In this document: positions 3,015 through 64,000 of the stretch, piece by piece
How the letters are laid out: each line of letters begins with the position of its first letter
Numbering within the stretch: position 1 is the first letter of the stretch
Source of the DNA: Scilla litardierei
Lineage: Eukaryota; Streptophyta; Magnoliopsida; Asparagales; Asparagaceae
Assembly: GCA_030789695.1 (NCBI GenBank)
Contig: CM061130.1
Location: 14,871,860 to 14,935,859 of the forward strand
DNA: 64,000 nucleotides
Direction of reading: 5' to 3'
Program-made: the position numbers and the translations under genes
Notes under the pieces: model-generated
Database searches by the model: none
Seen by the model: the letters and a program-made list of their open reading frames with translations, nothing else
Told to the model about the DNA's origin: nothing

Positions 3015-3015
3015 A

Positions 3016-6850: not shown

Positions 6851-6857
6851 TAAAGCT

Positions 6858-41731: not shown

Positions 41732-43322
41732 TGACGTGCCCCCGGTTTGCGAGCCGCAAATGGCCGGGGGACCTGCGTGGGGGTTTAGATATTTGTAACC
41801 GCAAGCGCACGGTGTTGTAGTGTGGCTTGGGGGTCGAACACAGGGAGGCTAGGATGTGCTTGTGTCAAGGAGGACCGGAATCACCCCGTGGGCGAGCTAG
41901 CCCAGATCGGTTGATGGGTTGTCATGGTAAAGGAATGCAAGATATGAACAATATGAAAATAAACCCGGGACTTTGGTTTCCACTCCAACGAGTGACTCTC
42001 GCCGATACGGCCTACGGGTAGGATGGCGATCGGAATTAGAGTCTAATGGTGAGACGTTGCCTCTGAAAGTGGTACCGGCATCCCATGGGCCCGATATTCC
42101 GGTCGGTGCCCAGGATGATACACCGGACTTCCCGGGTTCGATCAGTGGGCACTCCCGTGTCCATTAACACTGATCGATTCCGGGAGCACTAAACTCGCAA
42201 CGATAACTCCCAACGTCTCATCCTGCCGCTCCCGCGCGCTAGGATTCGGTGTCTACGCTAAGGGCGTGAGCTATGGCTAGGGAGTCAACCGCCAAGTTTA
42301 TTCCCCCATGGCCCAACGGTCAAAGGCGGTCTTTTTCCCGCCGATGACAATAAAACACCCCGCGTAACCGTTAGATTCCTAATCCCTAATGATTTTCTAA
42401 CCCTATGGACGCATCAGGAAGAGCCCCCGAAGGGATTTCCGCCAAAATCCCAGATTTGGGAACTACTCACTAATATTCATTAAAAAGCGATCTAAATGAA
42501 AATAGACCGTTGAAATCATAATCAGACGATATGAATGCAAAGGTAGTAGACCAATAAAGATAATACTAAAGTTCTACAAAGATCCGAAAACTTACAAAAA
42601 CAGGAAAATTACAGCCATAACAAAATGAAGAAAATAGTAAAAAATAACCAACTCCCGAATCTGGGAAACGTAGGGTCTATTTATAGAAAACGACATCACC
42701 CGATCGGTTGACAAGTCAACCGGTCGGGTGAGCCGCTTCACAAAATTACAGCGCGATGCGGGGGTTTCACCCGGTCAGTATGAACCGGTCGGTTGGATCT
42801 TGGTGCCGACCGATTGGATCTTGGTGCGGGCCGGGTGAGGAGACCGGTTGGAGCTTCGAGTCTTGGGTGTTGAAATTCAGCTACAGGTGAACCGATCGGG
42901 TGAAGGTCACCCGATCGGTTGGAAATCAGCTTCGAATTTCCAGAGACTTTGAGCTTTTGACCCGGTCACTGAACCGACCGTGTGACTTCTCGGGGGCTCC
43001 AAGCTGCGTCCGGGTGGTGCACGCATGCATCACCCGATCGATTGGAGATGACCAACCGACCGGGTGAGGGGCTGAAAGATGTAATCTTCGTCGTTTGACC
43101 CCCTGGATCATGCGTGACTCCTCCCATTGCTCCGGGGACACATGATATCATCGTTTTGCGTCCCAAATGCCAGCAAACTCCTGCAAAACACGGAAAATAC
43201 AGAAAAGTGAAAGAAAACAAGAAAATACAAGAAAACACGAGAAAACGAATAAAATACGACGGTAAATACGGAAAAACATGGAAGAAAACGTGCGTAAATA
43301 TATGAAATATAAACACACGTCA
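41732..43322 (-). repeat. 3' LTR of gypsy-2 (1591 bp)
   Basis: In plus orientation it runs TGACGTGCCCCCGG to AACACACGTCA. It is nearly identical to 50985-52576. The inverted hexamers TGACGT/ACGTCA end it. It contains the palindrome cluster and TATA described separately, and the conserved R/U5 text GGCTTGGGGGTCGAACACAG. Confidence 0.95.
42676..43069 (-). promoter_or_regulatory. Palindrome cluster and TATA box in the gypsy-2 3' LTR
   Basis: The minus-strand TATA (CTATAAATAGAC, 42676-42686) lies about 10 bp after a cluster of ACCCGATCGGTTG and ACCGGTCGGTTG words (42697-43066), many facing each other (42697-42732, 42891-42921, 43030-43066). Confidence 0.8.
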
Positions 43323-45023
43323 AAATCCCCTAAGCTGAACTCTTCCTCGTCCTCGAGGAAGACGAGTGAGAGTAGGAGCTCGGAGGGAGAAAATAGAGAG
43401 AAAGAGAGAAAAAGAGAACTCTATATTCTAGATCGCTGTCAGGGCCAACAAAATCAAAAACGACACACCGAGCAAGCAAATGCCAAATCACATCACTAAA
43501 CCTAGGAATACGAGCCCAAACAAGTGTCGAGGGCCCACGCGGTGAAGCGCGAGTGAGTGTGGTCGTGTGCTAGCAGACGGTGTCACTATCTACATTGTGT
43601 AATAAAGCTCGATATACACAAATCCAAGAAACGACCCAAATATCGATTCGAATTGAATAAGGCGGTGAGTATATGTAGTTCAAGCATGCATGAGAATAGA
43701 GAGAGAATCGAAACATATCATGCATCGGGGACTCCACAACTATGGTTAAGGAAATCACCACACTAAAGCCTAGATAATAGCTAAAAAGTTCCTAAGCCAA
43801 GTGTTTTCGAAAACGATGGGGGTTGAGATGATGTGGAGTAGAACACTCGGTGCAAATTCTCGCCTTCCCTTTATTCTCGGCATGTAGGAAAATATTCACA
43901 CAGAAATTTTTTTTTGATTTTGGGTATTTGTATTTTTTTTTGCCTTTTGGATATACATATTTTTTTTTCTCTTCATTTCTTTTTGGGTTTTTCTTTTCTT
44001 TTCTCTTTTTTTGGATTTTTGGTTTTTTTGGCTATACACATGTGTACTCTCCTAAGTGGGAGAACGATACACGACGAGGGGATTTGCACCAAGTAAAACA
44101 AAAAAGAAGTCGGAATCTAAACACTTGGGCAAAGGAAACTATTCTCGCTAAATAGAGCATAGGGTAAATGGGTTATCCTAGTCCTTAATTGTGGAATCCC
44201 GACACATGCGAAATGAAGTACACGATATATATATATATATAGCATGCAGAAGCAGACAGTGAAAATAAATACCGCATATTCAAATCGAAGCATGATAATC
44301 TAGGGATCATTCCAGGACAGGTATATAAAGTAAAATCACAAAGTAGAAGCACACAAAACAGCTAGGCACGACGCACGACTCACAAAAAGCTAAGTGGACC
44401 CACGATGCATGAAATGCAAGAGGACTCGAAATCCTAGGGTTAGTGAATGTGATTATCGATGCTATGCTAGGTGTGTGTGATTTTGTGGCAATTTATCACA
44501 GGGTTCATCTCTAGGAGAAAGAGATAAATAGAAGAAAAGAAAAAAAAATAAAAAATAAAAACACGATGAAAACGGCACAAAAACGAAAAAGAAAGACTCA
44601 AATGGCGCACACAGTGCGACTCCCCCAAGCTGAAGCTTGCATTGCCCTCAATGCAATAAGAGTGAGTATGGGAGGACAAGGAAGATGGGGGGGGGGGATA
44701 TGCACCGACACAAAAAGAAATGAAAAACAAGGAAAACACAGAGATGAAACTGAAAATAAAGAAAAATCAAAATCAAACCACACGACACGAAAAAAAAAGA
44801 AATAAAACCACACGACACGACAAAAAGCACACGACACGACACTCAAAAGGGGAAAAACAAGCTCACACAAAAAAAGAAAAAACAAAACAAGCACACACAC
44901 GACACTCACGACAACACAGCAAAACAGACGTCCCCCAAGCTAGACATGACAGTGCTAGCAAATAAAATGTGATCGTGAAATGCAGAAATATGCAAGGGGG
45001 AGTCAATAACAAACAAAGTGAAA
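43323..45023 (-). other. 3' non-coding region of gypsy-2 with repeated polypurine tracts
   Basis: AT-rich with GA-rich (43355-43420), poly-T (43905-44035) and A-rich blocks. The minus strand has three polypurine-type motifs: AGCTTAGGGGATTTTG next to the LTR (43323-43338), CAGCTTGGGGGAGTCGC (about 44622-44638) and TCTAGCTTGGGGGACG (about 44930-44945). AGCTTGGGGGA also occurs in gypsy-3 at 20046. Such tracts prime plus-strand DNA synthesis. Hydrophobic frames in the poly-T parts are composition artefacts. Confidence 0.6.
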
Positions 45024-45202
45024 TCAAAAATCAGGAGAAGGAGAATCCTCGCCCTCCTCGGAAGAGGGTGTGGCTGGGTAATCGGGGGAGGCGGGGGGTG
45101 TGCGGAGAAGTGGGGAAAGAGGTGGAGGAATAGGTGCAGCGGTCGTGTGAACGATGGGAGGAGTGAACGATGGAACGATGGGTGGTGGTGGTAGGACGGA
45201 GA

Positions 45203-47081
45203 TCAAGGTGGTGGTGAAAGGAATAGAAATGGGGGGAGAAGATGTGATGGTGACAGTAGTGGGTGGTGGTGGGAGAGATTTGGAGCGCACCGGTAATTTC
45301 CTCCGACGCAAATATGAAGTGATGGAGGAGGAGGGAGGAGGTAGTGTGGGTGCGATGGAAGTGGTCGGGAGGGGGGGACTGGATACCGGGATGGGAATAA
45401 ATGAGGGAGGAGAAGAATGTGGTGGGGGGGTGATGGATGTGGGGATGTGTGGGAGGGTGGAGGAGAAGATCGTCGAGGTGGTGAAGGTGGAGATGTGTGG
45501 GAGGGTGGAGGGGAAGATCGTCGAGGTGGTGAAGGTGGAGGTGGACCGTGGATGTGAGTGAGAAGGCGAAGAATGGTGGCCACGTTCCTCTCAAGTGCGA
45601 GGAAACGTGGGTGAGTGAGAAAGGAGGACGATGATGGGTCCGAGGAGGCAGAGGACATGGCGAGATCACGGAGGGCAGTGACCTCCCTTTGAAGACCAAG
45701 ACTGGCAGAGACCTGGCAACGACCAAAGGATGTGGACTGACGTGAGGCAGAAGTGGTGCCAGCAGGTAAGGTGGAAGTGGTGCCGGTGGTGGTGGTCATG
45801 CCGGCACAGGAGACAAGGCCATAAATGGCCGTTAAGAGGTGCTCAGAAGTGATGAGGCCAGGAACAGAACTATGGGGGCGACTCGGGCCAGCCCCCATAT
45901 CTCCCCGAGATGCAGGAATATCCTGATCGCCTAAGTGGGCGGCAGGGGAATGAGGTCTACGTGCGTCAGGGGGAAGGAAAGGAAGTTGCAACCCCTCAAA
46001 GAACTCAGGGTCGGGCGGAAAAGTCCAATCTGCCACGATAGCCACAATCATGCGAACGGGGTTGGGGAGAATAGTGTAGGGGCGAGGGGGTGGCCGTAAT
46101 TGAATTCGAAACGACCGTCGGGGCGGGGCTTAATCATGTGAATGTGCCACAGGATGTCAAGATCTAGACGTGAGGGTCCTGCGGTGGTGGGAAGACCACG
46201 GGGGATATGGATATTGAACGGGGGGTAAGTAACAATGATAGTGATAATGCCCCCACAGCAGATTTTGCCCTTCCCGGCTCTGCTAATCTCGAGAAGCTTG
46301 TAAACAAGCCAATCGCCAGCATGGACATGGACAACCGGGGCCCTGAAACTAACTCCATCATCATCACGAACAAAGGGGAAAGTCATGGCCCAGAGAATAA
46401 AAAGATCGGGGATAGTCATGGTGCCTGACTCATCCCGCGGGAAAAATGCAGATGATATGATCATATGGGCCAGACGGAATATGGGATGGATGATGGAGGA
46501 GGCCTTGGCCTTCCCCCGGGGGTACCGCGGAGTATGGTGAGGCGGAACCAGAAATTATCGACGTCAAATTCCGGGGGATATCCGTAGTGACGGATAGCGT
46601 CATTCCCTAGAATAGGGAAACCAAATATATCGCAGATGGTGTCTAGGTTTGTGCGAATGGTTTGGTTACGCACCCGAAAAGTGACGGTCGACCCCGACTC
46701 ACAAACGAGGGAGGAGAGGAATTCTAGGGTGAGTGACGGGTAAGATACCGCAGAGGCATTAAGGAAGGCCAACCAACCTAGATTAGCAAAAAGTGTTTCG
46801 ACCTCGGTGAATACACCGAGGTCGACGAGTGATTGGGAGTGGGCAATCTTGGTTGATAAATGCCCCCGAGTGTCAAGTCTGTGGTAGAAGTCTTTCTGCT
46901 CCTGGTTCCTAAATATGTATCCATGCGGGCCCAACATGGGGTCCACAGGGGGAATGATAGGCGGGGGAGGGGCAAGTGTCAGCTCACGTGTGCGGTGAGG
47001 AGGACGTGTTTGTTTCCGTCTCTTACGAGACGGTTCCTCCTCACGCAAGATACCTTTTCCTTTATCCCTCTCTCGGGCCAT
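45203..47081 (-). pseudogene. Athila env-like (extra) ORF of gypsy-2, in three overlapping frames
   Basis: The ATG at 47081 (MARERDKGKGILREEEPSRK, then RRKQTRPPHR) gives a basic, NLS-like start. The Athila ORF core follows: FTEVETLFANLGWLAFLNAS, SYPSLTLEFLSSLVC, TVTFRVRNQTIRTNLDTICD, IFGFPILGNDAI. The frame ends at 46461 in an ATGA overlap with a second ORF (46464-46048; TIPDLFILWAMTFPFV, KICCGGIITIIVTYPP). That ORF ends in another ATGA overlap with a third (46051-45203; LERNVATILRLLTHIH, then a Pro/Ser/His-rich tail). Each step is a -1 shift. No signal peptide or clear membrane segment is seen. Function unknown. The shifts may be mutations or translational coupling. Confidence 0.75.
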
Positions 47082-47510
47082 GTGTGTGTGTACGATGCAA
47101 ATGGGTGCAAAATACTATTAAAGTGCACACACCCGAAAACCAAGCAATTCAAATAGTAGGGTAAAACTCGAAATTCGAGAAGTGGAACGAAGTTACCCCG
47201 TAGCAAATAGAGCTCCTTGCTTGTAGATGACCCAATGCCGTGCAATTGGGGAAGTGTGTAGCCGCGGCACTCTTCTTCAGCGAAAAATTCGAAGGTGGGG
47301 GTGGATGTTGGGAATTAGGGCTAGAAAATTTGGAAATAGGAGAGGGGGAGAGAGGAAGAGATGGAGAAATGCAAGGGGGAGGTGGAGAGAGAAGTTGATG
47401 GAGGGTTTGAGGTTCTGGGAGAGAGATTTTTTGCAGTCGGGTGGCTGGAGGAGACGAAACGACGGCGAGTAGAGAGGATCAGGCGAGGGTTTGTGAGCGG
47501 GTGGTCGGGG
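47082..47510 (-). other. Leader of the gypsy-2 env-like ORF
   Basis: Minus-strand 5'-UTR-like stretch between the TATA box (47511) and the env-like ATG (47081), about 400 bp, C/T-rich with CTCTCTCC and AACCCTC words. The antisense GA-rich frame 47227-47472 is a shadow. Confidence 0.5.
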
Positions 47511-47880
47511 TGGTTATTTATAGGTTTTAAGTCGACCCGGTCGGGTGAGTTTTCATCCGATCGGTTGACTCTAGGTCGAAAATTTGTTGCTAAAGAAGCG
47601 CTACAGGCGACCCGATCGGTTGAGAACTCAACCGATCGGTTCACCGCTCCACAGATTTTCCCGAGAATTCAGAGTTTTTCACCCGGTCCATAACCCAGTC
47701 TCTCATCTTGCCACCCGGTCGGTTGATAAATTCTGAAATTTTTCCGAGAGTTCCCCCAGGTCACCCGGTCTGCTCACCCGGTTTCATCATTCTCCACCCG
47801 GTCGGTTCATTTGGTGACAGATACGACAGTAAGCTGATACATCCCAACCGATCGGGTGATATCTCACCCGATTGGTTGAG
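47511..47880 (-). promoter_or_regulatory. Internal promoter-like region of gypsy-2: LTR-type palindromes plus TATA box
   Basis: About nine ACCCGATCGGTTGA/ACCCGGTCGGTT words, partly as facing pairs (47604-47641, 47844-47880), occupy 47531-47880. The minus-strand box CTATAAATAACC follows immediately (47512-47523), about 430 bp before the env-like ATG. The words and their position next to a TATA box repeat the LTR promoter, but the surrounding text is not LTR sequence. Confidence 0.7.
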
Positions 47881-48077
47881 GCCTTGTTTTCTGCAAAAAC
47901 CCAAAAATCGCCTAAGATTCACGACGGGAGTTCTTCCGGCTGGATTTATTTTAGAAAAATAGATTAAAAATAAAGTAGAAAAAAGTCCTAAAAAGCGAAG
48001 CAAAAGTTTAGAACATGGGTTGCCTCCCATCAAGCGCTTTTGTTTAACGTCGTTAGCTCGACGCCCGTTGATAATTT

Positions 48078-49583
48078 TCATGGTGGGCGGTACGGGTGAT
48101 GCCCAAAATCCGGCATCTCTTCAGCTCCAGAGGTTGTGGCTATTGGTGTAGTCAGCGGCTGTAAAAAGATTTGCTCGACTACCCTCTCTTTGTTCACATG
48201 ATCGGGGGGCTTCTCCCTCAAATTGGCGTCCACCGCCATCTTTTTCAGGATCCGGACCTCATCACCGGTGAGGTCCATGGGTTCTTTTCCTTTTCTCCTC
48301 GTGGGAGGAGACTTAGGAAATCCGGGAGGGATCATATGTCACGCGACCGCCTCATTAGACACTTCATTCTTAGGGGAGCCAACTTGCTCTCCAAGGTCCC
48401 CCAAGCTATCGGGGGGATTCCTCGAGAGCACTTCACATGCACTCGTTTCAACAGCTCTTTCTTCTTCATTCTCCAACACATTGATACTAGGATCGTCCGG
48501 GGGGTTTAGATGTTTCATCGACAAGCCCAAGTCAAATTCGACTCTTTCTTGGCCCACATTCAGGGAAAGCTTCCTGTTCTTTATGTCTATCAACACTCCG
48601 TCGGTTGCCATAAAGGGTCGTCCAAGAATAATTGGGGTATGCTTGTCTTCCGGCATGTCCATCACCACAAAATCGACTGGTACATGCACCCCTTTCACAT
48701 CGACTGGGAGGTCGTCCACTACTCCCACCGGATACTTAACCGAACGGTCAGCAAGTTGCAATGTCATGCCGGTGGGCTCTAAGTCTCCCATCCCTATTCT
48801 CTTGTACAACGATAGGGTCATTAAACTGACGCTCGCACCAAGATCGACGAGCGCCCTATGGATTTGCACTTCCCTGATAGAGCAAGGGATGGAGAAACTT
48901 CCTGGATCCTTGAGCTTGGGCGGATTTGCACGCTGAATGAGTGCGCTGCACTCCACCGTTAACACGACCTTTTCTTTTCTAGATCCCCGTGTCACCAAGT
49001 CTTTCAAGAATTTTGCATAGGAGGGGATTGTCTCTATGGCCTCGAGGAAGGGGATTTGCAAACTCATGTCTTTCACCATGGCAAAGAATTTGCCATACTT
49101 CTCATCGATTTTGGCTTTGGCGAGCCGTTGTGGGAAAGGCACAACGGGCCTGAATACCTTCAAATTCCCTTCTTCTTTCTTCTTCTCTTCTTCGGGGGTT
49201 CCCTCCGGAGCCACAATTTTTGGCGACGGGGCACCGTCGTCATTAGCTTTATCAATTGACCGCTCGACGGCCAGTGGTGCTTCCGGTTCCTTGGGCGGCG
49301 CTCTAGTAGGAATTTATGTCCCGCTCCTCAAGACGATGGCAGACACGTTTTCATGTTCATGTGTGAGTGCCAAGGTCCGATTTACCCCCCTAGGGTTCAC
49401 CTCAGGTTGTGGCGGTAATAAATTCTAATGTCTTTGCAGGTTCGCCACTTGCAACCCCAGCTGGGTCACCTGATCAGTGAGCACTCTTTGTCCCATCTCT
49501 AGCTTCAGATTAATTTTCTCCTGGTTGGCTATGTATTGAGTCAAGAGGGACTCAACCGGAGAAATGGCCCTCTGTTGGCCATA
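48078..49583 (-). pseudogene. pr: Gypsy-2 protease region, broken
   Basis: It is in frame with gag across a TAA at 49584-49586. The linker (TQYIANQEKINLKL) is followed by stops near 49423 and 49312. The 291-codon frame 49214-48339 then contains retropepsin: IHRALVDLGASVSLMTLSLY, where Athila-type protease has DLGAS in place of DSGAS/DTGAS, then VVDDLPVDVKGVHVPVDFVV and PIILGRPFMATDG. A single in-frame TGA at 48339 precedes the last piece (IPPGFPKSPPTRRKGKEPMD, to 48078). No RT follows. The aspartyl protease would cleave Gag. With several stops it is unlikely to be made as one chain. Confidence 0.85.
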
Positions 49584-50792
49584 TTACTGCTGGGTGGGCT
49601 GCTGATTCCTAGGGGCATATTGTTGATACTGTGGTGGAGGTTGTTGCTGATATTGCTGCTGGGGCCTAGCCGGCTGATATATCTGCTGTTGTTGCTGAGC
49701 CGGTTGTAGGTAGGGTGCCCGGTAACTAAGGTTCGGATGATTCCGGTTGTTGGGAGAGTAGGCCGGGTTTGAGTTGGTCCGGGGTGGAAATGGCGCATTC
49801 CCCGTAGGATTGTAAGACAATGCGCTCGCCTGATCTAATGGTGGTGAGACGTCACCACCGTCGAATTCCCCAAAAACTTTGGATTCTACTGCAGCAATCT
49901 GTTGTGTACCGGCGCCACCGGCGCCTACCATCAATGCGGAGATCTGGGTTGACAGCAAGTCAAACTTGCTTGAAAATTTGTCGACGTCTTCCACTCTATG
50001 GATGCCCCCAAACCTTGGTGTGGACCTCTCGTCACACCACCGTTCATTGTTGGATGCCATATTTTCCAAAATTTGCCCGGCATCTTCTTCGCTTCTTGAC
50101 ATGAAGGACCCTCCAGCCGCGGTGTCCATGGAAGACTTTAAATCGTCCCTCAACCCATTATAAAACAGATTTATAATCTGCCACTTGGGGAGCTCATGGT
50201 GGGGACATCTTCTCTGCATCTCCTTGTATCTTGTCCAAGCCTTATGCAAGGACTCGTGGCTGGCCTGGGAGAAGGAGGAGATCTCACTCCTCAGCTTCAT
50301 GGTCTTCCCCGGAGGAAAGAACTTCATCAGAAAAGCATTGGAGAGCTTCTCCCAGGTGTTGAATGTGTTGGGGTCCTTCCCCCTAAGCCACAGCTTGGCC
50401 TTATCTCGCAAGGAGAAGGGGAACAGCTTCAGTCGGATCGCCTCAGTTGTGACACCGTTAATCCGGAAGGTGTCACATTTCTCCAAGAAGGAGTCTAGAT
50501 GCTCGATCGGGCTCTCCATGGGTGCACCCGAACACTGATCCTGCTGGATCCACGTCACCAAAGATGGCTTAAGCTTGAAGCTTTGGGCCGTTATAGCTGG
50601 AGGACGGATGGCGGAGGTGGACTCGATGGAAGGCATCGAGTACTCCAGCAGGGACTTGTGAGGCGGCGTGTTCTCCACCATGGCTTCAGGATCCTCTCTT
50701 CTGCGCTTCTCTGCGGCCAAACGCCTAAGGGTGTCGTTTATCTCTGGATCGACGGGGATCAAGTCGTCGAGACTTCTTGAACTCCTGCGCAT
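49584..50792 (-). CDS. gag: Athila-like Gag (about 402 codons)
   Basis: Capsid protein of gypsy-2. The frame is open from 50822, but the ATG at 50792 (MRRSSRSLDDLIPVDPEIND) is chosen because gypsy-1 starts there too. A retrotransposon gag domain (PF03732-type) follows: IEHLDSFLEKCDTFRINGVT, RDKAKLWLRGKDPNTFNTWE, LSNAFLMKFFPPGKTMKLRS, WQIINLFYNGL. Later comes an ISALMVGAGG segment and a Gln/Pro/Tyr-rich tail (YQQQPPPQYQQYAPRNQQ) ending in TAA at 49584. A Q-rich tail with no zinc knuckle is usual in Athila. It is the least damaged ORF of this element, while its protease is broken. Confidence 0.88.
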   Translation of the reverse strand: MRRSSRSLDDLIPVDPEINDTLRRLAAEKRRREDPEAMVENTPPHKSLLEYSMPSIESTSAIRPPAITAQSFKLKPSLVTWIQQDQCSGAPMESPIEHLDSFLEKCDTFRINGVTTEAIRLKLFPFSLRDKAKLWLRGKDPNTFNTWEKLSNAFLMKFFPPGKTMKLRSEISSFSQASHESLHKAWTRYKEMQRRCPHHELPKWQIINLFYNGLRDDLKSSMDTAAGGSFMSRSEEDAGQILENMASNNERWCDERSTPRFGGIHRVEDVDKFSSKFDLLSTQISALMVGAGGAGTQQIAAVESKVFGEFDGGDVSPPLDQASALSYNPTGNAPFPPRTNSNPAYSPNNRNHPNLSYRAPYLQPAQQQQQIYQPARPQQQYQQQPPPQYQQYAPRNQQPTQQ

Positions 50793-50960
50793 GAAAAACA
50801 ACAAACACCCGTGAAGCGACAAGTGGGAAAGAAACAGATAAGGTAAGAAATAAAAATAAGAAAATAAAAAGGAAAAAGAAGAATGCGAAAATTATCGCGA
50901 GGTAGGGATAAGAGCTAGACACTAGGGTTCAAGAGATCCTAAAATAACAAGCACGTTGCC

Positions 50961-50978: not shown

Positions 50979-50984
50979 TAAACT

Positions 50985-52576
50985 TGACGTGCCCCCGGTT
51001 TGCGAGCCGCAAATGGCCGGGGGACCCGCGTGAGGGTTTAGATATTTGTAACCGCAAGCGCACGGTGTTGTAGTGTGGCTTGGGGGTCGAAAACAGGGAG
51101 GCTAGGATGTGCTTGTGTCAAGGAGGACCGAAATCACCCCGTGGGCGAGCTAGCCCAGATCGGTTGATGGGTTGTCACGGTAAAGGAATGCAAGATATGA
51201 ACACTATGAAAATAAACCCGGGACTTTGGTTTCCACTCCAACGAGCGAATCTCGCCGATACGGCCAACGGGTAGGATGGCGATCGGGATTAGAGTCTAAT
51301 GGTGAGACGTTGCCTCTGAAAGTGGTACTGGTATCCCATGGGCCCGATATTCCGGTCGGTGCCCAGGATGATACACCGGACTTCCCGGGTTCGATCAGTG
51401 GGCACTCCCGTGTCCATTAACATTGATCGATTCCGGGAGCACTAAACTCGCAACGATAACTCCCAACGTCTCATCCTGCCGCTCCCGCGCGCTAGGATTC
51501 GGCGTCTATGCTAAGGGCGTGCGCTATGGCTAGGGAGTCAACTACCAAGTTTATTCCCCCTTGGCCCAACGGTCAAAGGCGGTCTTTTTCCTGCCGATGA
51601 CAATAAAACACCCCGCGTAACCGTTAGATTCCTAATCCCTAACGATTTCCTAACCCTATGGACGCATCAGGAAGAGCCCCCGAAGGGGTTTCCGCCAAAA
51701 TCCCAGATTTGGGAACCACTCACCAATATTCATTAAAAAGCGATCTAAATGAAAATAGACCGTTGAAATCATAATCAGACGAAAGGAATGCAAAGGTAGT
51801 AGAGCAATAAAGATAATACTAAAGTTTTACAAAGATCCGAAAACTTACAAAAACAGGAAAATTACAGCCGTCACAAAATGAAGAAAACAGTAAAAAATAA
51901 CAAACGCCCGAATATGGGAAACCTAGGGTTCTATTTATATAAAATGACATCACCCGATCAGTTGACAAGTCAACCGGTCGGGTGAGACGCTTCACAAAAT
52001 TACAGCGCGATGCGGGGGTTTCACCCGGTCAGTATGAACCGGTCGGTTGGATCTTGGTGCCGACCGGTTGGATCTTGGTGCGGGCCGAGTGAGGAGACCG
52101 GTTGGAGCTTCGAGTCTTGGCTGTTGAAATTCAGCTACATGTGAACCGATCGGGTGAAGGTCACCCGATCGGTTGGAAATCAGCTTCGAATTTCCAGAGA
52201 CTTTGAGCTTTTGACCCGGTCACTGAACCGACCGGGTGACTTCTCGGGGGCTCCAAGCTGCGTCCGGGTGGTGCACACGTGCATCACCCGATCGGTTGGA
52301 GATGACCAACCGACCGGGTGAGGGGCTGAAAGATGTAATCTTCGTCGTTTGACCCCCTGGATCACGCGTGACTCCTCCCGTTGCTCCGGGGACACATGAT
52401 ATCATCGTTTTACGTCCCAAATGCCAGCAAACTCCTGCAAAACACGGAAAATACGGAAAAGTGAAAGAAAACAAGAAAATACAAGAAAACACGAGAAAAT
52501 GAATAAAAGACAGCGGTAAATACGGAAAAACATGGAAGAAAACGTGCGTAAATATTTGAAATATAAACGCACGTCA
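50985..52576 (-). repeat. 5' LTR of gypsy-2 (1592 bp)
   Basis: Plus orientation TGACGTGCCCCCGG to AACGCACGTCA, followed by CCAAC (target duplication). Pair of 41732-43322 with low divergence. Confidence 0.95.
51931..52322 (-). promoter_or_regulatory. Palindrome cluster and TATA box in the gypsy-2 5' LTR
   Basis: The minus-strand TATA (TATATAAATAG, about 51931-51942) comes after the palindrome cluster 51951-52320, as in the 3' LTR. This LTR would drive the genomic transcript. Confidence 0.8.
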
Positions 52577-54068: not shown

Positions 54069-54105
54069 ATTGGTCGACTAATTCACCAATATTGGTCGCC
54101 AATTG
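54069..54105 (+). promoter_or_regulatory. Internal palindromes of Sire-1 after pol
   Basis: ATTGGTCGACTAA and ATTGGTCGCCAATT are one- or two-base variants of the LTR palindrome TTGGTCGACCAA. They lie 70-100 bp after the pol stop and before the env-like leader, the place where Sire-2 has its internal cluster. Confidence 0.6.
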
Positions 54106-55448: not shown

Positions 55449-55449
55449 T

Positions 55450-55461
55450 TGGTATCAGAGC
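55450..55461 (+). promoter_or_regulatory. Primer-binding site of copia copy 2
   Basis: TGGTATCAGAGC one base after the LTR end, an exact tRNA-Met match. Confidence 0.95.
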
Positions 55462-56039: not shown

Positions 56040-56610
56040 TGGCCGGCCATGGCCAAAGGGCCATGGTCGGCCATGGCCAGGCCGGCCAGCCGGCCGGCCA
56101 TGGCCAGAGCCAGGGGGCCCTGGCCGTGGCCAGGGCCAGGGGGCCCTGGCCGTGGCCAGGGCCAGGAGGCCCTGGTCGGCCTCGGCCAGAGCCAGGGGCC
56201 GGCCTGGCCGGCCCTGGAAGGGGCCAGGGCCGGCGCCCTGGCCTCGGCCAGGGCCAGGGGGCCCTGGCCGGGGCTAGGCCAGGGCCAGGGCCCTGCCGGC
56301 CCGGGCAGAGGCCATGGCCGGTGCCCTGGCCGGAGGGCCAGGGCCCTACCGGCCCTGGCAGAGGCCAGGGCCGGCACCCTGGCCGAGGCCAGGGCCGATG
56401 CCCTGGCCGGCCCTGGCCTCTGCCAGGGCCACGGCCGGCCCTGGCCTCTGCCAGGGCCACGGCCGGCCCTTGGCAGTGGCTAGGGCCAGGCCGGCCGGCC
56501 CTTGGCAGTGGCCAGGGCTAGGCGAAGGCCTGCAGGGCCAGGCCGAGGCCAATGCCCGGCAACTGCCGGCCCCGGCCTCGGCCAGTGCCGAACCCCGGTC
56601 GAGCCCCGGT
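56040..56610. repeat. GGCCAGGGCC array in the leader of copia copy 2
   Basis: The same word set as 1867-2490 (GGCCAGGGCC, GGCCCTGGCC, CCTCTGCCAGGGCC), with more GGCCATGGCC at its left edge. The order of units differs from copy 1, so the array is length- and order-variable between copies. Frames of 99-213 codons on both strands are artefacts. Confidence 0.92.
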
Positions 56611-56729
56611 TGACCCTGGATTTGGGGGGGGGCTTGCATGAAGGTGACATGCATGGCTAGCCCATACGGTGACAACGGCAGTCGTCTGCGGCAATATTTT
56701 CCTATAGGGGGGAGAGTGCATGGATCCAT

Positions 56730-58469
56730 TGTAATGCCCTACCAGCTACTGCACAAGTACTAGAGGGGGGTGAATAGTACTTTAAAATAATAAGGCGTAT
56801 AATTCCAAATTAAATTGCACACAACTACCAAATCAATTTGCGGAAGCTTAAATTGAATGACAACAATGAAATTAACAATGCTAACAAACGATGTTAATTG
56901 GTTCGGATCCACCCAAGTCTCCCCGACTTGTTCCCGGTGATCCTACGTCCCAACCACCCGGATCCCCTCCGGATACTTGAGTTAGAAACCCTAACTCAAG
57001 ATTTCCACTATGAATATCTTGTGAAAAACCTTCACAAGATCAAATCATACATGCAATGGCAAAGTGAATCCCACAACCCGGGATCACAAACTTCTCTCAC
57101 AACCGAGAGAATCACAAAGCAATATTAAAGAGTTTAATATGAAATAAACAAGCTTACCACAAAATCCTATACCTTGAGTTTTTCTTACCCAATAGGTGGA
57201 ATGAAGGATTTGAGGAAGATGAAGTTACCAAACCCTAGCACCAAGGAAATGAGCAGCAATGGGTGCCTAGGGATGATTTGGAAACTTGAATCAAGCAATA
57301 GCTTGAAGAGCTCACCAAGAACAAGCTTCTCTCTAGATCTAGAAATGAGAGAGAATGGGTTTCTTGTGAGGAAGAGAGCTTTAGATTTGAGGGAGAATGG
57401 CTATCTCTTTAGAACTCAATGAATCTCTTAATGGCAGCTCTATTGAAGATAGAAATGACCTAGGTTCGTATTTATAGGGTCCCATAAAAACAAGTTAGGT
57501 CATTCTCCAACGGAAAGAAATCTGTGAGGATTAGTCGGTCAAAGAACAAACACTGACCGACTAGATCATCAACTAGTCGGTCAGTCACAAAGCATGGACC
57601 GACTAAGAGCAGATCTGAGAAGAGATAGAATTTCAGACCTAGAAATCTAGTCGGTCCAAGAAGACTGTCTGACCGACTAGTTTCACAACTAGTCGGTCAT
57701 CCAATGAACGTAGACCGACTAAGAGGCAAAACAACTTAGTCTGAAGGCAAGTTGACTTAGTCAGTCCAAGAACAAAAGTTGACCGACTAGATTATCAACT
57801 AGTCGGTCATCAAACGTTCTTAGACCGACTAACGGTAAACAGTAGCTTAGGAGAATTTTAGAGTGAACAGTAAGTCTCAACTAGTCGGTCAAAGAAGCAT
57901 CACTGACCGACTAGTTCACAAACTAGTCGGTCGGTGAGTCAACGTAGACCGACTAACTGTAAACAGTAAAGTCCAAGAAATTAAGGAATCAAACTAGTCG
58001 GTCCAAGAACAGTTGCCGACCGACTAGATCACCATCTAGTCGGTCAGTACTTGTTCTTGTACCAACTAACATGCACAACAAAGTCCGAATCGAAGCGCGA
58101 CGCTTCGAGGAGTTAGAATGAACTTGTGCAAGGATCCTAGAGCTACGAAATGAGCGTAATGAAGATAGAAACGTAAGATATACTCAAGGCTTAACATTAT
58201 ATCAATCGAAACTAAAAGACTATAAATAAAACCTTAATAAACGGTCTTTGAGAGCTTCGATTGAATCTTCATAACTTCCAAAGCGTTGCAGGAGCTTCAA
58301 CGAAGCTTTAGGCATGAATATGAGCTTTGGAAAGTGTTGAGATGTCGCTTTGAATATTCTCGTGAAATTGGCGACGATCTCCAATACTGCGCTCACAAAT
58401 TGTTAGTTCATGAATTATTTATGTTTGCTCATCATCCAAAACCAAATCCGGGGAGTCCAATATTCAACA
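56730..58469 (-). repeat. 3' LTR of Sire-2 (1740 bp)
   Basis: Minus strand TGTTGAATATTGG to GGGCATTACA. The start follows the polypurine tract AAAAAGGGGGAGAA. The end carries CTATTCACCCCCCTCTAGTA as in Sire-1. It contains about ten TAGTCGGTC hairpins and a TATA box. ORFs at 56898-57422 are shadows. Confidence 0.92.
57468..58070 (-). promoter_or_regulatory. LTR promoter of Sire-2: TAGTCGGTC hairpin cluster plus TATA box
   Basis: About ten inverted pairs CTAGTCGGTC...GACCGACTAG, arms of 9-10 bp with loops of about 13-25 bases, fill 57531-58070 at a spacing of about 50-60 bp. The minus-strand TATA (CTATAAATACG, 57468-57478) follows within about 60 bp. The same word set recurs at 61507-61810. 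Confidence 0.85.
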
Positions 58470-59451: not shown

Positions 59452-61107
59452 TCACGGGGAGGAGGCTGGATCTGCAGCGTCAGTGGGTCCAGTCGATGGA
59501 GTGGACTCAGGCTCTGCAGGGAGAAGAGGTGTCTCAACAGATGGAATTGTCGGGGCAGGAGTGGAGATCTCAGCAACAGGCTCAACAGCAGCATGAGTCT
59601 CGACAGAAGCAGCAGCAGCAGATACATGAGCAGGCTTGGAAACTAGGTCAGCAGCAGGCTCAGAAGGCTGAAGAGCTGCAGCAGATGGCTCTGGAACACC
59701 GGAAGTGGTGGCAACTCCAGGAGCAGAAGTGGAAGTACCAGCAGCAGCAGCAGCAGTGGCCTCATCGCCACGGGCAAAAGAAGTAGCAAGCTCGTCGAGC
59801 TCCTCATCGTCCATCTCCTCGGCCTCAGACACCGAAGGAGGAAGCTCAATCCCCATCATACGAGCCATACGGCAGACTACCTCCTCAGTACGAGCCAAAC
59901 GGGAGTCGTGCTGACGAAGTAGGCGTACGACATCGTCCAATGTAGCAGGGGAAGACGAGGCTGCAGCAGCTGACGGAGTAGACTGAGAAGCAGATGCGGT
60001 AGACCTCTGCACGTGACGAAGAGCCGCTAGAGATTTCTTCACGGCCGTCGCGTTCAGAGGCGTACCCAAAGGACGCTCATCGTCAGGAGGGAGGGGGACT
60101 CGGAAATGACGGAATACGAGAGTCAACAGGCAAGGGTATGGAATGTGCGCAGACTTATTGGTCTTGCGTATACACTCGAAAGAATCCATCTTATCGAGTA
60201 TCACGCGAGCCCAATTTATCTCGCACCCCAAGAAAAGAGCGTATATGAGTTTCAAGAACGACTGGGATGGGAGTGAAGAGGATCCATACTTAGGGAGGAG
60301 ACACGACTTCAAAATCAGGTTAAGAACCCACGCATTCGGCTTAAAAGATTTCGATGGAACACCAATGAATGCGGAGGGGATAACCTGGAAAATCTCAGAA
60401 AGAATAGACTGATCCAAGGAAGAAATGTCGTCTACGGAAATGTCCGAAGGGAGGAGACCACACGACGCACAACCAAGGATCTCCCCCAAGATTTCTGCCG
60501 TGAGAACTTTAGGAGTTCCCAAGACAGTCGTCTCAATGGAGTGGCTGGCATCGTACTGGCCTCGAATACGGTTGGCATAGAACAATTTCACGAGGCGAGG
60601 GTACGGTTTGGGATTGGCCTTGGGGTCGTATCGGAGATAATCTAGAAGGCCACTATAAGACAGAAGATCAGCAAGGCCGAGAAAATCAGAGAACTGAACG
60701 TAATGCTCCAACAGCAGTGGACAGTGTTCTATACGGTTGTACGCGGCGAGACACTGAGGGTCATCGCGGCACAACGATATGTCTACATCGCCAACTGGCA
60801 TAGGAGCTTTACCCTTGGCCTTACGGGTCTTCGGAGGTGGAGTGGGTTCCCTAGTAGGCTCATCCTCAGGAATAAAATCAGTGTCGGAATCGGGAGGAGT
60901 AGCCGGAGTGTGAAGAATAGGTTTTTTGGTCTTGGATTTGCGGGGTTTAACTATGGCAGTCCTAGGCTTCTTAAGAGGAGGCGACGAAGGAGAGGCTTGG
61001 GTAGACTTGGCACGACGCTTAGGCTTCGGGGGATTCCTAGGGTCGGAAGGCCCTACGGTCATAGGAGAAGCCCCGGAAGAGGCGATAGGAATTCTAGTCT
61101 TAGCCAT
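59452..61107 (-). CDS. Sirevirus env-like ORF (551 aa), 'putative plant transposon protein' type
   Basis: An intact frame from ATG at 61107 to 59452, after pol and before the 3' LTR, where SIRE elements carry an env-like ORF. Residues 1-105 are Pro/Lys/Ser-rich with NLS-like PKPKRRAK and KPRKSKTKK. A conserved core runs about 110-345 (CPLLLEHYVQFSDFLGLADL, YPRLVKLFYANRIRG, ETTVLGTPKVLTAEILGEIL, LPKYGSSSLPSQSFLKLIYA), resembling the PF20167-type plant transposon domain. A short amphipathic helix lies at 389-418 (LDDVVRLLRQHDSRLARTEE), then an acidic patch and an Ala/Ser/Pro tail. I see no signal peptide or membrane segment, so an envelope role is not supported. Function is unknown. Its leader carries the LTR-type palindromes. 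Confidence 0.8.
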   Translation of the reverse strand: MAKTRIPIASSGASPMTVGPSDPRNPPKPKRRAKSTQASPSSPPLKKPRTAIVKPRKSKTKKPILHTPATPPDSDTDFIPEDEPTREPTPPPKTRKAKGKAPMPVGDVDISLCRDDPQCLAAYNRIEHCPLLLEHYVQFSDFLGLADLLSYSGLLDYLRYDPKANPKPYPRLVKLFYANRIRGQYDASHSIETTVLGTPKVLTAEILGEILGCASCGLLPSDISVDDISSLDQSILSEIFQVIPSAFIGVPSKSFKPNAWVLNLILKSCLLPKYGSSSLPSQSFLKLIYALFLGCEINWARVILDKMDSFECIRKTNKSAHIPYPCLLTLVFRHFRVPLPPDDERPLGTPLNATAVKKSLAALRHVQRSTASASQSTPSAAAASSSPATLDDVVRLLRQHDSRLARTEEVVCRMARMMGIELPPSVSEAEEMDDEELDELATSFARGDEATAAAAAGTSTSAPGVATTSGVPEPSAAALQPSEPAADLVSKPAHVSAAAASVETHAAVEPVAEISTPAPTIPSVETPLLPAEPESTPSTGPTDAADPASSP

Positions 61108-61506
61108 AGCACTACGAGCACAAGCAAGTAATCACGGAGGATCAACAACCCTAAGCATAAAACCTAGAAGCTAGCACAAAACCCTAGAACACCAAATGAA
61201 ATCGAACACACAAACCCTAGAGGAGAAATTTCGAAACCCTAGAAAACCTAGGAGGAGAAAACGAACCCTAGGGCAAGAAATTGACCTAGGAGAGGGAGGG
61301 AGATACCTAGGAGGTGGAGTCGACGACGGCGGACGGCGGGGATGGCCGGAGATTTGGCCGGAGACGACGGATTTTGAAGGAGGGTTCGATCGGGGTTTTG
61401 GGGTTTTCGAGTTTGAGCTGAGAGGAAACCGACTAAAAATGAAATTAGTCGGATGAAAAATGAGTATAAGTCGGTTGGAAGACGAAAAGACTCAACTGCC
61501 CTAACC
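61108..61506 (-). other. Leader of the Sire-2 env-like ORF
   Basis: Minus-strand 5'-UTR-like text with repeated AACCCTAG/CCTAGGTT words (61145-61300) and C/T-rich runs. A diverged TAGTCGG pair sits at 61430-61475. TATACTCATTTTTCATC near 61450-61470 is the only TATA-like run. Antisense frames at 60926-61456 are shadows. Confidence 0.5.
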
Positions 61507-61810
61507 CACTTAGTCGGTCACAGTTCAAGTATTGACCGACTAGATTACGATCTAGTCGGTCGGTCAATGAGCTTGAACCGACTAAGTCGAAACAGTAGCT
61601 CAGAGTGATTTTTAGGGCTGGATTTAGTCGGTCGCAGTATACTTACTGACCGACTAGTTTTCAATCTAGTCGGTCGGAAAGTGTACTATGACCGACTAAC
61701 GAAAGAAAAAGATAGGAGATGGATATTTGCTTGATCTAGTCGGTCTGAGTTCATTTGCTGACCGACTAGATGAGCATCTAGTTGGTTGACAAGTGAACTG
61801 AAACCGACTA
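61507..61810 (-). promoter_or_regulatory. Internal palindromic cluster of Sire-2
   Basis: About six TAGTCGGTC...GACCGACTAG inverted pairs (for example near 61512-61545, 61553-61585, 61627-61660, 61667-61698, 61737-61770), identical in word and geometry to the LTR cluster at 57531-58070. Located between the pol stop and the env-like ORF. Confidence 0.8.
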
Positions 61811-62056
61811 GAAGAGTCCAAAAATAGAAATTTGATTTCTCTTCACAAACCACTTGGATGAAACATCCTAACTCACTCATTAGTCATCTAAATTACCCCA
61901 TAAAACGTCGAAATCTTAAGTACGACATTGAAATACGAATTCGAGCAATAAATTCGAATAAATCACATAAAATTCCCAAAAATTCAATTAATCTAGCATG
62001 AATGAAATATCGCGAAATATATTAACATGCAAGATGATTGAATTTAAATATGAATC
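61811..62056 (-). other. Spacer after Sire-2 pol
   Basis: AT-rich non-coding spacer between the pol stop and the palindrome cluster. No motif recognised. Confidence 0.5.
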
Positions 62057-64000
62057 CTATATCTCGGATTCACCCATAATCCCCAATTCTCGACGCAACC
62101 GCACAAAGGAGTCCTCCTTTAGGGGTTTCGTGAAAATATCGGCGATTTGCTTTTGGGTTTCAACGTACACTAAAATGATGTCCTTTTTAGCAACATGATC
62201 ATCTAAGAAATGGTGTCGGACATCTATGTGTTTCGATCGGGAATGGTGCACCGGATTCTTTGAAAGACAAATAGCACTTTGGTTATCCACCATGATAGGG
62301 CTAGTATCACAATGAATACCAAAATCCTTCAATGTGTGTCTCATCCAAAGAACCTGGGCACAAGCGGCACCGGCGGCAATGTATTCTGCCTCGGTGGTTG
62401 AAAGTGATACCGAATTTTGCTTCTTGGAAAACCAAGAGACAAGAGAATTTCCTAGAAAATGGCAAGTGCCACTAGTACTTTTCCTGTCGGATTTGCATCC
62501 CGCATAATCAGCGTCACTATATGAGACTAACTCATATGTGCTAGATCTCGGATAAAGTAATCCAAAATCTAATGTGTAACTTAGATAACGGAAAATACGC
62601 TTTACCGCTACTAAGTGAGAATCCTTAGGTTGAGACTGATAACGAGCACATATGCATACGGCAAACATAATATCGGGCCTACTTACGGTAAGATAAAGCA
62701 AACTACCTATCATACCTCGATATAGACGAATGTCTACATCCTTACCGCCCGTATCCTTGTCAAGATGCGTAGTCGTGCTCATTGGAGTCTTTTTCCCGGA
62801 GGCATTCTCCATTCCAAATCGCTTTAGCAACTCCACCGTGTACTTCGTTTGGTGGATGAAGATTGCATCGTTCATTTGGTGAATTTGGAGACCTAAGAAA
62901 TATTTGAGTTCGCCCATGTGGCTCATCTCAAATTGTTCCTTCATCACATTAGAAAACTCTTCGCAAAGAGCGAAGTTAGTAGCACCGAAAATGATATCAT
63001 CAACATAAATTTGAACTAATAAAATATCATTATTTGCATGCTTAATAAAAAGTGTTGAATCGGCTTCGCCCATTTTAAAATTCAAATCCAAAAGAAAATT
63101 CTTTAGGCGATCATACCAAGCTCGAGGAGCTTGTCTCAAACCATAAAGAGCTTTCTTTAGTTTAAAAACGTGATTCGGAAATTTTTCATTTATGAAGCCC
63201 GGAGGTTGAGAAACGTAAACTTCCTCAACGACATCTCCGTTTGAAAATGCACTTTTAACATCCATTTGAAATAATTTAAAATTCTTATGGCATGCAAAAG
63301 ACAAAAGTAATCTAATTGATTCTAATCTAGCTACCGGAGCGAAAGATTCTTCGAAATCGATACCTTCCTCTTGACGATAGCCTTGAGCTACTAACCGAGC
63401 TTTGTTCCGGACGACGACTTGGTTTTCGTCGGTTTTGTTCTTGAAGATCCACTTTGTCCCTATGACGGTGTGGTTCTTCGATGGCAATGGAACAAGCTCC
63501 CAAACTTCATTCCTCTCGAATTGAATGAGCTCCTCCTCCATGGCTAAGATCCAAGCGCTATCTTCGCATGCTTCATTAATATTCTTTGGCTCTATCGATG
63601 AGGCAAAGGCACAATTTGCGAAGTGGTGAACTTGCGATCTCGTCTTGACACTATCATAGATATTGCCAATGACTTGCTCATGGGGATGGTCACGAACCGA
63701 ATGAAGCCGTTTGGGAATACCTTGATCACTAGGAACATTCTCAACAACTTCATTAGTTGGGTTAGTCTCAATAGAATCATTAGAATCATTAGACTTAGAA
63801 TTATCAAACGAATCACATAAAACATCCATAGAATCATTATCATTTGAAATTCTAGTTGGAACAAATCCTTCATTAAATGAGACATGAAGCGATTCCTCGA
63901 TCGTTGAGGTTCGTTTGTTGAATATCCGGTAGGCTTTGCTACGCGTAGAATATCCAACAAAAATCCCCTCATCGGATCTCGGATCGAATTTGTCCAAACT
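62057..64000 (-). CDS. pol: Sirevirus Pol: integrase C-terminus, RT and RNase H (partial at right edge)
   Basis: Open from the window edge to the stop at 62057 without interruption (646 codons from the first ATG). It starts in the integrase C-terminal region ([20 protein letters not shown]), crosses a variable acidic/Asn-Ser linker, and enters [34 protein letters not shown] (first catalytic Asp near residue 246), [24 protein letters not shown] at 331-334. RNase H follows with [39 protein letters not shown] and [20 protein letters not shown]. It ends [13 protein letters not shown]. All catalytic motifs visible are intact. The protein would convert element RNA to cDNA in cytoplasmic particles. 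Confidence 0.95.

What the first reader, a model, noticed from the sequence alone, without database searches (positions are those of the whole stretch)
41732..64000. Family-specific palindromic words mark both the LTR promoter and a second, internal promoter-like region before the env-like ORF, in copia and gypsy elements alike
Seen directly: gypsy-2 has ACCCGATCGGTTGA words at 42697-43066 and 51951-52320 (LTRs, each within about 20 bp of a TATA box) and at 47531-47880 (internal, next to CTATAAATAACC, about 430 bp before the env-like ATG). Sire-2 has TAGTCGGTC hairpins at 57531-58070 (LTR, near TATA) and 61507-61810 (before the env-like ORF). Sire-1 has TTGGTCGACCAA at 37318-37466 and variants at 54069-54105. 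Gypsy-3 (19409-19740) and gypsy-1 (3661-3780 and 7863-8195) fit too. Each family has its own word, shared between its two sites, and all words contain GATCG, GGTCG or CGAC cores. Two unrelated superfamilies sharing this layout suggests an independent env-like transcription unit driven by the same host or element factor as the LTR. Palindromic repeats in Sirevirus LTR promoters are, as I recall, already described; the internal partner cluster and the parallel in Athila are what I would check as new.
Basis: partly seen in the sequence, partly recalled or inferred. Interest (0 to 1): 0.9.

Follow-up and report, generated by a model that had tools for sequence, protein, structure and literature searches.

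The report
LTR palindrome arrays before accessory genes
In a stretch of what is likely plant DNA, jumping genes (retrotransposons) of two separate superfamilies carry arrays of a palindromic word next to their main promoter signal and again in front of an extra gene, which likely gives that gene its own promoter under the same control.

Summary
The gypsy word TCAMCCGRYCGGKTGA (<=2 mismatches) occurs 35 times in the 64 kb, only in arrays: gypsy-2 8 in each LTR and 8 internally, gypsy-1 5 and 3, gypsy-3 3. Sire-2 has five LTR and three internal units of four half-sites, all eight with 23/19/23-bp offsets. Sire-1's internal copy is two degraded words.

For Sireviruses this is published: Bousios 2010 describes palindromic repeated motifs in LTRs and before ENV, and discusses an internal promoter. 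Not seen in my ten searches of open-licence papers: the same layout in ATHILA-type gypsy elements; a shared unit of four alternating half-sites; PF20167 behind a Sirevirus array, a family reported as related to gypsy-2's PF03078.

For an internal promoter: a TATA box at the same 10-bp distance as in the LTRs (gypsy-2 only), and CT-rich, AUG-poor leaders. Between gypsy-1 and gypsy-2, internal word columns keep 79-83% identity while flanks fall to 50%. Against: strict TATA after 1 of 4 internal arrays, no transcript data, and an RNA hairpin role is not excluded (gypsy doublets pair better within than between doublets, pooled P 0.006).

The parts
51950..52321 (-). gypsy-2 5' LTR palindrome array (8 words, three doublets 19-22 bp apart)
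51932..51939 (-). gypsy-2 5' LTR TATA box (TATAAATA), 10 bp after the last word
42696..43067 (-). gypsy-2 3' LTR palindrome array, 8 words at the positions of the 5' LTR array
42678..42685 (-). gypsy-2 3' LTR TATA box, 10 bp after the last word
49584..50888 (-). gypsy-2 gag (PF03732, 1.4e-21)
48342..49313 (-). gypsy-2 protease ORF (PF13650, 4.6e-7); no RT/RNase H/integrase hit in the pieces scanned
47533..47879 (-). gypsy-2 internal palindrome array (8 words at <=2, 9 at <=3 mismatches; three doublets 20 bp apart)
47515..47522 (-). gypsy-2 internal TATA box (TATAAATA), 10 bp after the last word, same spacing as in both LTRs
47082..47485 (-). gypsy-2 predicted leader: CT-rich, 0 ATG in 404 nt
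46464..47081 (-). gypsy-2 accessory ORF, first piece from ATG 47081 (PF03078 ATHILA ORF-1, 9e-8; RKRRK basic motif)
46051..46554 (-). gypsy-2 accessory ORF, second piece in another frame (PF03078, 5.8e-9)
7863..8193 (-). gypsy-1 LTR palindrome array (9 words at <=3 mismatches)
3693..3779 (-). gypsy-1 internal array remnant (3 words, one doublet 20 bp apart), cut by an LTR element inserted at about 3623
57532..58068 (-). Sire-2 LTR array: five tetrads of half-site TAGTCGGTC, offsets 23/19/23
57469..57476 (-). Sire-2 LTR TATA box
61511..61810 (-). Sire-2 internal array: three tetrads with the same 23/19/23 offsets
59452..61107 (-). Sire-2 accessory ORF from ATG 61107; PF20167 (4.2e-15) at 60094-60609; basic Pro-rich N-terminus
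37318..37465 (+). Sire-1 LTR words TTGGTCGACCAA (3; two of them 22 bp apart); TATA box at 37558
54070..54103 (+). Sire-1 internal degraded word pair, 22 bp apart (weak)
19406..19713 (+). gypsy-3 internal array (9 words like TCACTCGATCGAGTGA, spacings 21,61,21,21,62,22,62,22), downstream of gypsy RNase H and a weak integrase remnant

Best explanation
Arrays of palindromic words sit directly upstream of the LTR TATA box and again just upstream of an accessory ('env-like') gene in gypsy and copia retrotransposons of this window, and the internal array is likely a second promoter that would express that gene under the same control as the LTR. Shown: in gypsy-2 the word is confined to the two LTR arrays and the internal array. 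Shown: its unit is four half-sites in alternating orientation (doublets of 16-bp palindromes 19-22 bp apart in gypsy; 74-bp tetrads with fixed 23/19/23 offsets in Sire-2). Shown: internally, words outlast their flanks between gypsy-1 and gypsy-2. Shown: in gypsy-2 the last word lies 10 bp before TATAAATA in both LTRs and internally, though LTR and internal flanks show little likeness. Inferred: a factor that binds as a dimer of dimers recognises each unit on DNA. Inferred: transcription starts about 30 bp after the internal TATA box or, in TATA-less Sire-2, in the CT-rich leader. Inferred: the product is a nuclear regulatory protein rather than an envelope. Untested: whether the factor is a host protein or the accessory protein itself.
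For: Enrichment and confinement of words. Rigid unit geometry: 8 of 8 Sire-2 tetrads, with spacers between tetrads varying 36-50 bp; 14 gypsy word pairs at 19-22 bp against 3.0 by chance over five arrays, although the two gypsy-1 arrays alone are not significant. Selective retention: internal columns in a word in both gypsy-1 and gypsy-2 are 79% identical (83% for columns in either) against 50% outside; in LTRs, columns in shared words 83% against 67% outside. Sire-2 half-sites are 95% identical LTR to internal against 50% for interiors. Word-to-TATA spacing of 10 bp at three gypsy-2 sites. All 4 internal arrays checked are followed, 60-210 bp on, by 64-77% pyrimidine (window 95th percentile 63%); the same stretch after the 5 LTR arrays is 55-67%, 3 of 5 above it. 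ATG falls from 17 in 703 nt upstream of the gypsy-2 and Sire-2 arrays to 1 in 747 nt of leader (Fisher 5e-5). Precedents: internal-promoter proposal for Sireviruses (PMC2829016); Grande gene23 is transcribed from its own promoter and is nuclear (PMC7264820 passages).
Against: No transcript data. Strict TATA box after 1 of 4 internal arrays. The AUG shortage is weaker when dinucleotide composition is kept (2 against 7.1 expected in three leaders, P 0.03; with gypsy-3, 4 against 11.0, P 0.015). Gypsy-1's LTR lacks the word doublet next to its TATA box, which is 54 bp from the last word. In LTR columns that are a word in either element, identity (61%) is lower than outside (67%), as 7 of 12 word positions are not shared. 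Gypsy doublets pair with themselves better than with other doublets (pooled P 0.006), and Sire-2 interiors are more complementary than shuffled ones, both of which suit a hairpin. CpG enrichment is not confined to the arrays. Only the copies in this window could be examined.
Confidence: 0.6

Rival explanations
1. The arrays act as RNA (or single-strand DNA) hairpins. Both arrays are present in the genomic RNA (the U3 part through the 3' LTR), and the stem-loops serve packaging, RNA stability or as small-RNA sources.
For: Gypsy doublets form 16-bp stems with 3-6 nt loops; nine pooled gypsy-1/2 doublets pair better within (13.8 of 16) than between doublets (12.6; P 0.006, P 0.001 with G-U). Sire-2 interiors are complementary at 61 of 112 positions, about twice the shuffled expectation. 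The Sire-2 internal array folds far better than shuffles (z -11.7), the gypsy-2 internal one moderately (z -4.4). A passage in PMC5311732 calls Sirevirus LTR palindromes small-RNA mapping hotspots.
Against: Sire-2 interiors are not significantly better matched within than between tetrads (P 0.16), while half-sites stay 95% identical, so pairing alone does not explain what is kept. The doublet excess is not significant in any single array or in gypsy-3. A hairpin does not need arms that are palindromes themselves. LTR arrays precede the TATA box in the element orientation in 5 of 5.
Confidence: 0.22
2. The internal array is a passive relic: a piece of LTR copied into the interval before the ORF long ago, without function.
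For: In Sire-2 the flanks outside the words are still alike between LTR and internal array over about 108 columns, masked ones included (score 21, maximum of 300 shuffles 19).
Against: In gypsy-2 masked flanks show little or no likeness (P 0.04 cluster, 0.28 whole LTR). A neutral relic would not keep words at 79-83% while flanks fall to 50%, nor exact offsets in 3 of 3 internal tetrads.
Confidence: 0.1
3. The accessory ORF is expressed from the LTR by splicing or read-through, as proposed for BAGY2/Athila and SIRE1, and the array has another role such as nucleosome exclusion or a chromatin boundary.
For: PMC2829016 passage: splice acceptors are predicted for BAGY2 and Athila, and stop-codon suppression is reported for SIRE1.
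Against: In gypsy-2 the protease ORF stops at 48339 and the ATG is at 47081; in Sire-2 pol stops at about 62057 and the ATG is at 61107, so simple read-through does not fit; splicing was not tested.
Confidence: 0.2

Closest known systems
Sirevirus repeated motifs (RM boxes), Bousios et al. 2010, PMC2829016
   Same: Palindromic, element-specific, high-copy words upstream of the LTR TATA box and in the linker before ENV; 77 of 79 linker copies lie upstream of ENV; none in four ENV-less elements; internal promoter discussed.
   Different: Reported as Sirevirus-specific and absent from classic copia elements; the data set was Ty1/copia; a fixed four-half-site unit is not described in what I read (abstract, sections 9, 10, 19 and passages).
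Grande gene23 (Tat-lineage gypsy)
   Same: A gypsy accessory gene between pol and 3' LTR with its own promoter and a nuclear product (PMC7264820 passages; paper title in the reference list of PMC11963269).
   Different: Antisense to gag-pol; no shared LTR word mentioned in the passages seen. The primary paper was not read; 'Tat lineage' is recalled.
Athila aORF with Transposase_32, sunflower, PMC11728184
   Same: Accessory ORF matching PF20167, which that paper calls related to PF03078, with a nuclear localisation signal (passages).
   Different: No promoter array and no Sirevirus counterpart in the passages seen.
VANC anti-silencing proteins of VANDAL elements, PMC5735166
   Same: Family-specific short motifs clustered in non-coding parts of the element that encodes the binder; motifs turn over quickly (passages).
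   Different: DNA transposons; same-orientation motifs, not alternating half-sites; binding is demonstrated there and untested here.

Membership tests
Sirevirus (Sire-1, Sire-2) | Multiple AGGGGGAG polypurine tracts before the 3' LTR | tested here: met
   4 copies in Sire-2 between 59460 and 58401; not tested in Sire-1, whose 3' part is interrupted
Sirevirus (Sire-1, Sire-2) | polyC-rich integrase signal in the LTR and PBS TATCAGAGC | tested here: met
   CACCCCCC in both LTRs; TGGTATCAGAGC at 38266 in Sire-1; Sire-2's 5' end lies outside the window
Sirevirus (Sire-1, Sire-2) | copia-type gag/integrase/RT | tested here: met
   PF14223, PF00665 and PF07727 in Sire-1; Sire-2 62041-63463 is 69% identical to Sire-1's RT stretch
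Sirevirus RM boxes | Palindromic repeats upstream of TATA in the LTR and before ENV, at least 8 copies (Sire-2) | tested here: met
   20 and 12 half-sites
Sirevirus RM boxes | At least 8 copies (Sire-1) | tested here: not met
   3 LTR words and 2 degraded internal words
Sirevirus RM boxes | Host element is a Sirevirus (gypsy-1/2/3 arrays) | tested here: not met
   gypsy gag PF03732 or gypsy RNase H PF17917; they look built like RM boxes but cannot be filed as Sirevirus RMs
Sirevirus RM boxes | Array defines a CpG island | tested here: inconclusive
   CpG o/e 0.93-1.15 in the five arrays measured, but 1.09 and 1.61 in other gypsy-2 LTR parts and 1.14 in Sire-2 pol
Athila lineage (gypsy-1, gypsy-2) | ATHILA ORF-1 protein downstream of gag/pol | tested here: met
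   gypsy-2 PF03078 in two pieces, 9e-8 and 5.8e-9; gypsy-1 is truncated before it
Athila lineage (gypsy-1, gypsy-2) | RT phylogeny | not testable with these tools
   no RT found in gypsy-2; gypsy-1 aligns to it end to end over the part present
VANC-like self-recognition | Element-encoded protein binds the motif | not testable with these tools
   needs DAP-seq or EMSA; single-sequence AlphaFold model has mean pLDDT 43
VANC-like self-recognition | Motifs arrayed in the same orientation | tested here: not met
   half-sites alternate in orientation

The most novel reading that the evidence does not exclude
LTR retrotransposons of both plant superfamilies carry a related nuclear accessory protein (PF20167/PF03078) that binds its own family's four-half-site arrays in the LTR and in its own internal promoter: a self-recognising switch, analogous to VANC anti-silencing, in which word and protein co-evolve. 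The 'env-like' gene of plant retroviruses would then be a transcription or anti-silencing factor, not an envelope.
Probability: 0.17. Interest if true: 0.92.

Novelty: new variant of a known kind. Interest (0 to 1): 0.55.

Why it matters
What the 'envelope-like' genes of plant retrotransposons do is still called controversial in the papers read. An internal promoter that copies LTR control, found in two superfamilies in front of nuclear-looking proteins, points away from an envelope and towards regulation. It makes the question testable with one binding assay and one 5'-end map. The four-half-site unit also gives a concrete search pattern for the unknown factor.

Tried and rejected
Whole-genome copies: the genome search 'own' was unanswered three times (not completed). 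Relatives elsewhere: the protein search with the Sire-2 ORF scored 7992 candidates, none at E <= 0.001; the viral contig scan found no relative; two DNA pattern scans gave one contig each, without an array of these words, taken as chance.

Structure: the single-sequence AlphaFold model of the Sire-2 ORF is uninformative (mean pLDDT 43), so no fold search was made.

First thought to be accessory-gene swapping between gypsy-1 and Sire-1: the DNA likeness 1953-3624 / 54897-56576 (66%) is a third LTR element (own LTR start, TATA box, tRNA-Met-type primer site, read by eye) inserted in both, not a shared gene.

Direct blastp of the Sire-2 ORF against gypsy-2 pieces gave nothing below E 0.16. Their relatedness rests on a sub-threshold PF20167 match of one gypsy-2 piece (E 0.16) and on the statement in PMC11728184; it is not proven here. 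The Sire-1 ORF pieces had no Pfam match.

Literature: ten searches; judged from the listings, which were capped (20 of 27, 15 of 161, 12 of 91, 20 of 26, 10 of 11), none is on paired LTR/internal palindrome arrays in gypsy elements. Only open-licence papers are covered. Bousios et al. 2016 (PMC4728375) is not held.

Full report
WHAT THE ELEMENTS ARE. Gypsy-2 runs on the minus strand from 52576 to 41732 with two LTRs of about 1.59 kb, 96.3% identical. Ten open pieces were scanned: they show gag (PF03732) and a protease, no reverse transcriptase, RNase H or integrase, and an ORF in pieces matching PF03078 'ATHILA ORF-1'. Only 459 bp lie between the protease stop and the internal array. Gypsy-1 (8440 to 3661, minus) is 69% identical to gypsy-2 over a 4.9-kb alignment and has gag, so this RT-less form is probably old. 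It is cut off inside its internal array by another LTR element at about 3623. Gypsy-3 (plus strand) has gypsy RNase H (PF17917) and a weak integrase match upstream of its array; I saw no LTRs for it. Sire-1 and Sire-2 are Sireviruses by gag/integrase/RT (Sire-1), polypurine tracts (4 copies in Sire-2), polyC signal (both) and primer site (Sire-1).

THE WORDS ARE REAL AND CONFINED. A consensus read from gypsy-2 LTR words, TCAMCCGRYCGGKTGA, has 35 hits at <=2 mismatches in the whole window: 8 in each gypsy-2 LTR, 8 in the gypsy-2 internal array, 5 and 3 in the gypsy-1 LTR and internal arrays, 3 in the gypsy-3 array, none elsewhere. Shuffles of gypsy-2's internal 7662 bp give mean 0.03, maximum 1 of 100, against 8 observed. 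For the Sire-2 half-site TAGTCGGTC, 30 of 35 window hits at <=1 mismatch lie in its two arrays. Sire-1 has one internal word at <=1 mismatch, shuffled means 0.01 and 0.00 for its two pieces.

THE UNIT IS FOUR HALF-SITES. In Sire-2 each unit is + - + - with start offsets 23, 19, 23; this holds in 5 of 5 LTR units and 3 of 3 internal units, while spacers between units vary from 36 to 50 bp. In the gypsy families two 16-bp palindromes, again four half-sites + - + -, lie 19-22 bp apart: 14 such neighbours in five arrays against 3.0 expected for random placement. By array: gypsy-2 LTR 3 (P 0.008), gypsy-2 internal 3 (P 0.03), gypsy-3 5 (0 of 5000), gypsy-1 LTR 2 (P 0.18), gypsy-1 internal 1 (P 0.16). 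Sire-1 words lie 22 bp apart once in the LTR (its third LTR word is 114 bp away) and in the internal remnant. About 21 bp is two turns of DNA (general knowledge), which suggests a factor binding one face as a dimer of dimers; this is inference.

THE WORDS OUTLIVE THEIR SURROUNDINGS. Aligning gypsy-1 with gypsy-2: internal columns lying in words of both are 79% identical (48 columns), in words of either 83% (63), outside 50% (181). In LTRs, columns in shared words are 83% against 67% outside, but columns in words of either are only 61%, because 5 of 12 word positions are shared and the other 7 belong to one element only. So sites turn over while the array persists. In Sire-2, LTR and internal half-sites are 95% identical, interiors 50% (shuffled interiors 26%).

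IS THE INTERNAL ARRAY A COPIED LTR PIECE? In gypsy-2, with words masked, LTR and internal flanks are barely or not alike (P 0.04 for clusters, 0.28 for the whole LTR, 300 shuffles). In Sire-2 the flanks are alike (score 21, shuffle maximum 19), so that array is an old duplication.

SIGNS OF A PROMOTER. In gypsy-2 the last word is followed after 10 bp by TATAAATA in both LTRs and at the internal site. Strict TATAWA within 110 bp follows 5 of 5 LTR arrays and 1 of 4 internal arrays checked (background 9.8% of positions); gypsy-3 has CTATTAAA, Sire-2 and Sire-1 none. The stretch 60-210 bp downstream of the 4 internal arrays is 64-77% pyrimidine (window 95th percentile 63%); after the 5 LTR arrays it is 55-67%. 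The leader of gypsy-2 has no ATG in 404 nt before ATG 47081, Sire-2's has 1 in 343, Sire-1's 1 in 545, gypsy-3's downstream 401 nt has 2; the stretches upstream of the gypsy-2 and Sire-2 arrays have 9 in 458 and 8 in 245. Leaders versus upstream for gypsy-2 and Sire-2: Fisher 5e-5; against dinucleotide-preserving expectation, 2 against 7.1 for three leaders (P 0.03), 4 against 11.0 with gypsy-3 (P 0.015). Alone, only gypsy-2's leader is below its shuffles at the 5% level (P 0.036; Sire-2 0.41, Sire-1 0.22, gypsy-3 0.20). The array thus marks a change from an AUG-rich to an AUG-poor, CT-rich region, as expected if an mRNA begins there. This is indirect.

THE GENE BEHIND THE ARRAY. The Sire-2 ORF (559 codons stop to stop, ATG at 61107) matches PF20167 'putative plant transposon protein' (4.2e-15), with a basic, proline-rich N-terminus. 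Two gypsy-2 ORF pieces match PF03078 and one has a sub-threshold PF20167 match (E 0.16). PMC11728184 states that PF20167 is related to Athila ORF1 PF03078 and predicts a nuclear signal for a sunflower Athila protein (passages). Highest 19-residue mean hydropathy: 1.64 in Sire-2, 1.22 and 1.35 in the gypsy-2 ATHILA pieces, 1.19, 1.01 and 1.87 in three further gypsy-2 reading frames of doubtful status, 1.43 in one Sire-1 frame; no dedicated membrane predictor was run. So 'env-like' is a weak label, and the superfamilies may share more than the array.

THE HAIRPIN RIVAL. Gypsy doublets are also stem-loops with 3-6 nt loops, and pair better within (13.8 of 16) than between doublets (12.6; P 0.006; P 0.001 with G-U; pooled gypsy-1/2, nine doublets). 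By subset it is not significant: gypsy-2 LTR 0.17, gypsy-2 internal 0.33, gypsy-1 0.18, gypsy-3 0.15. Sire-2 interiors are complementary at 61 of 112 positions, about twice chance, and the Sire-2 internal array folds strongly (z -11.7). Against it: Sire-2 interiors are not significantly better matched within than between tetrads (P 0.16). I rate DNA binding likelier but hairpins are open.

WHAT IS KNOWN. Bousios et al. 2010 (PMC2829016; abstract, sections 9, 10, 19 and passages read) found palindromic repeated motifs in 13 Sireviruses, with linker copies in the nine that have ENV, 77 of 79 upstream of ENV, and none in the four without; they link this to an internal promoter but could not conclusively identify one. 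Hence the copia half of the finding is known. Grande gene23 shows that a gypsy accessory gene can have its own promoter (PMC7264820 passages). Paired arrays in Athila-type gypsy elements, the four-half-site unit, and a PF20167 protein behind a Sirevirus array were not seen in the listings of my searches, which cover open-licence papers only and were partly capped.

VERDICT. A real, non-random and likely functional layout; new variant of a known kind. The boldest open reading, that the accessory protein binds these arrays itself, is untested.

Noticed in passing
1865-3623 (minus) and 54898-56619 (plus): A third LTR element (LTR start TGTTGGATATG, TATA box, tRNA-Met-type primer site, read by eye) is inserted in gypsy-1's internal array and in Sire-1's accessory ORF. 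Each copy carries a 600-bp GC-rich array of GGCCAGGGCC-like palindromes that is open in several frames on both strands.
   Followed up: partly
1810 and 1832: The Sire-1 LTR word TTGGTCGACCAA appears as a perfect pair 22 bp apart beside that GC-rich array; no Sire-1 likeness around it was listed in the self-comparison.
   Followed up: no
3661-8440 and 41732-52576: Gypsy-1 and gypsy-2 show the same RT-less gag-protease layout at 69% identity, suggesting a long-lived non-autonomous lineage moved in trans.
   Followed up: partly
61107-61420 (minus): Sire-2's leader holds several TAGGGTTT-like boxes, resembling plant telo-box 5' UTRs (resemblance recalled, not tested).
   Followed up: no
20176-20447 and 20669-20945: Two 80% identical copies of a segment starting TATATATATACTAGTCATAACCCGTGCCCG; GGCGCCTTCGGCGC repeats lie in the first; origin not determined.
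   Followed up: no
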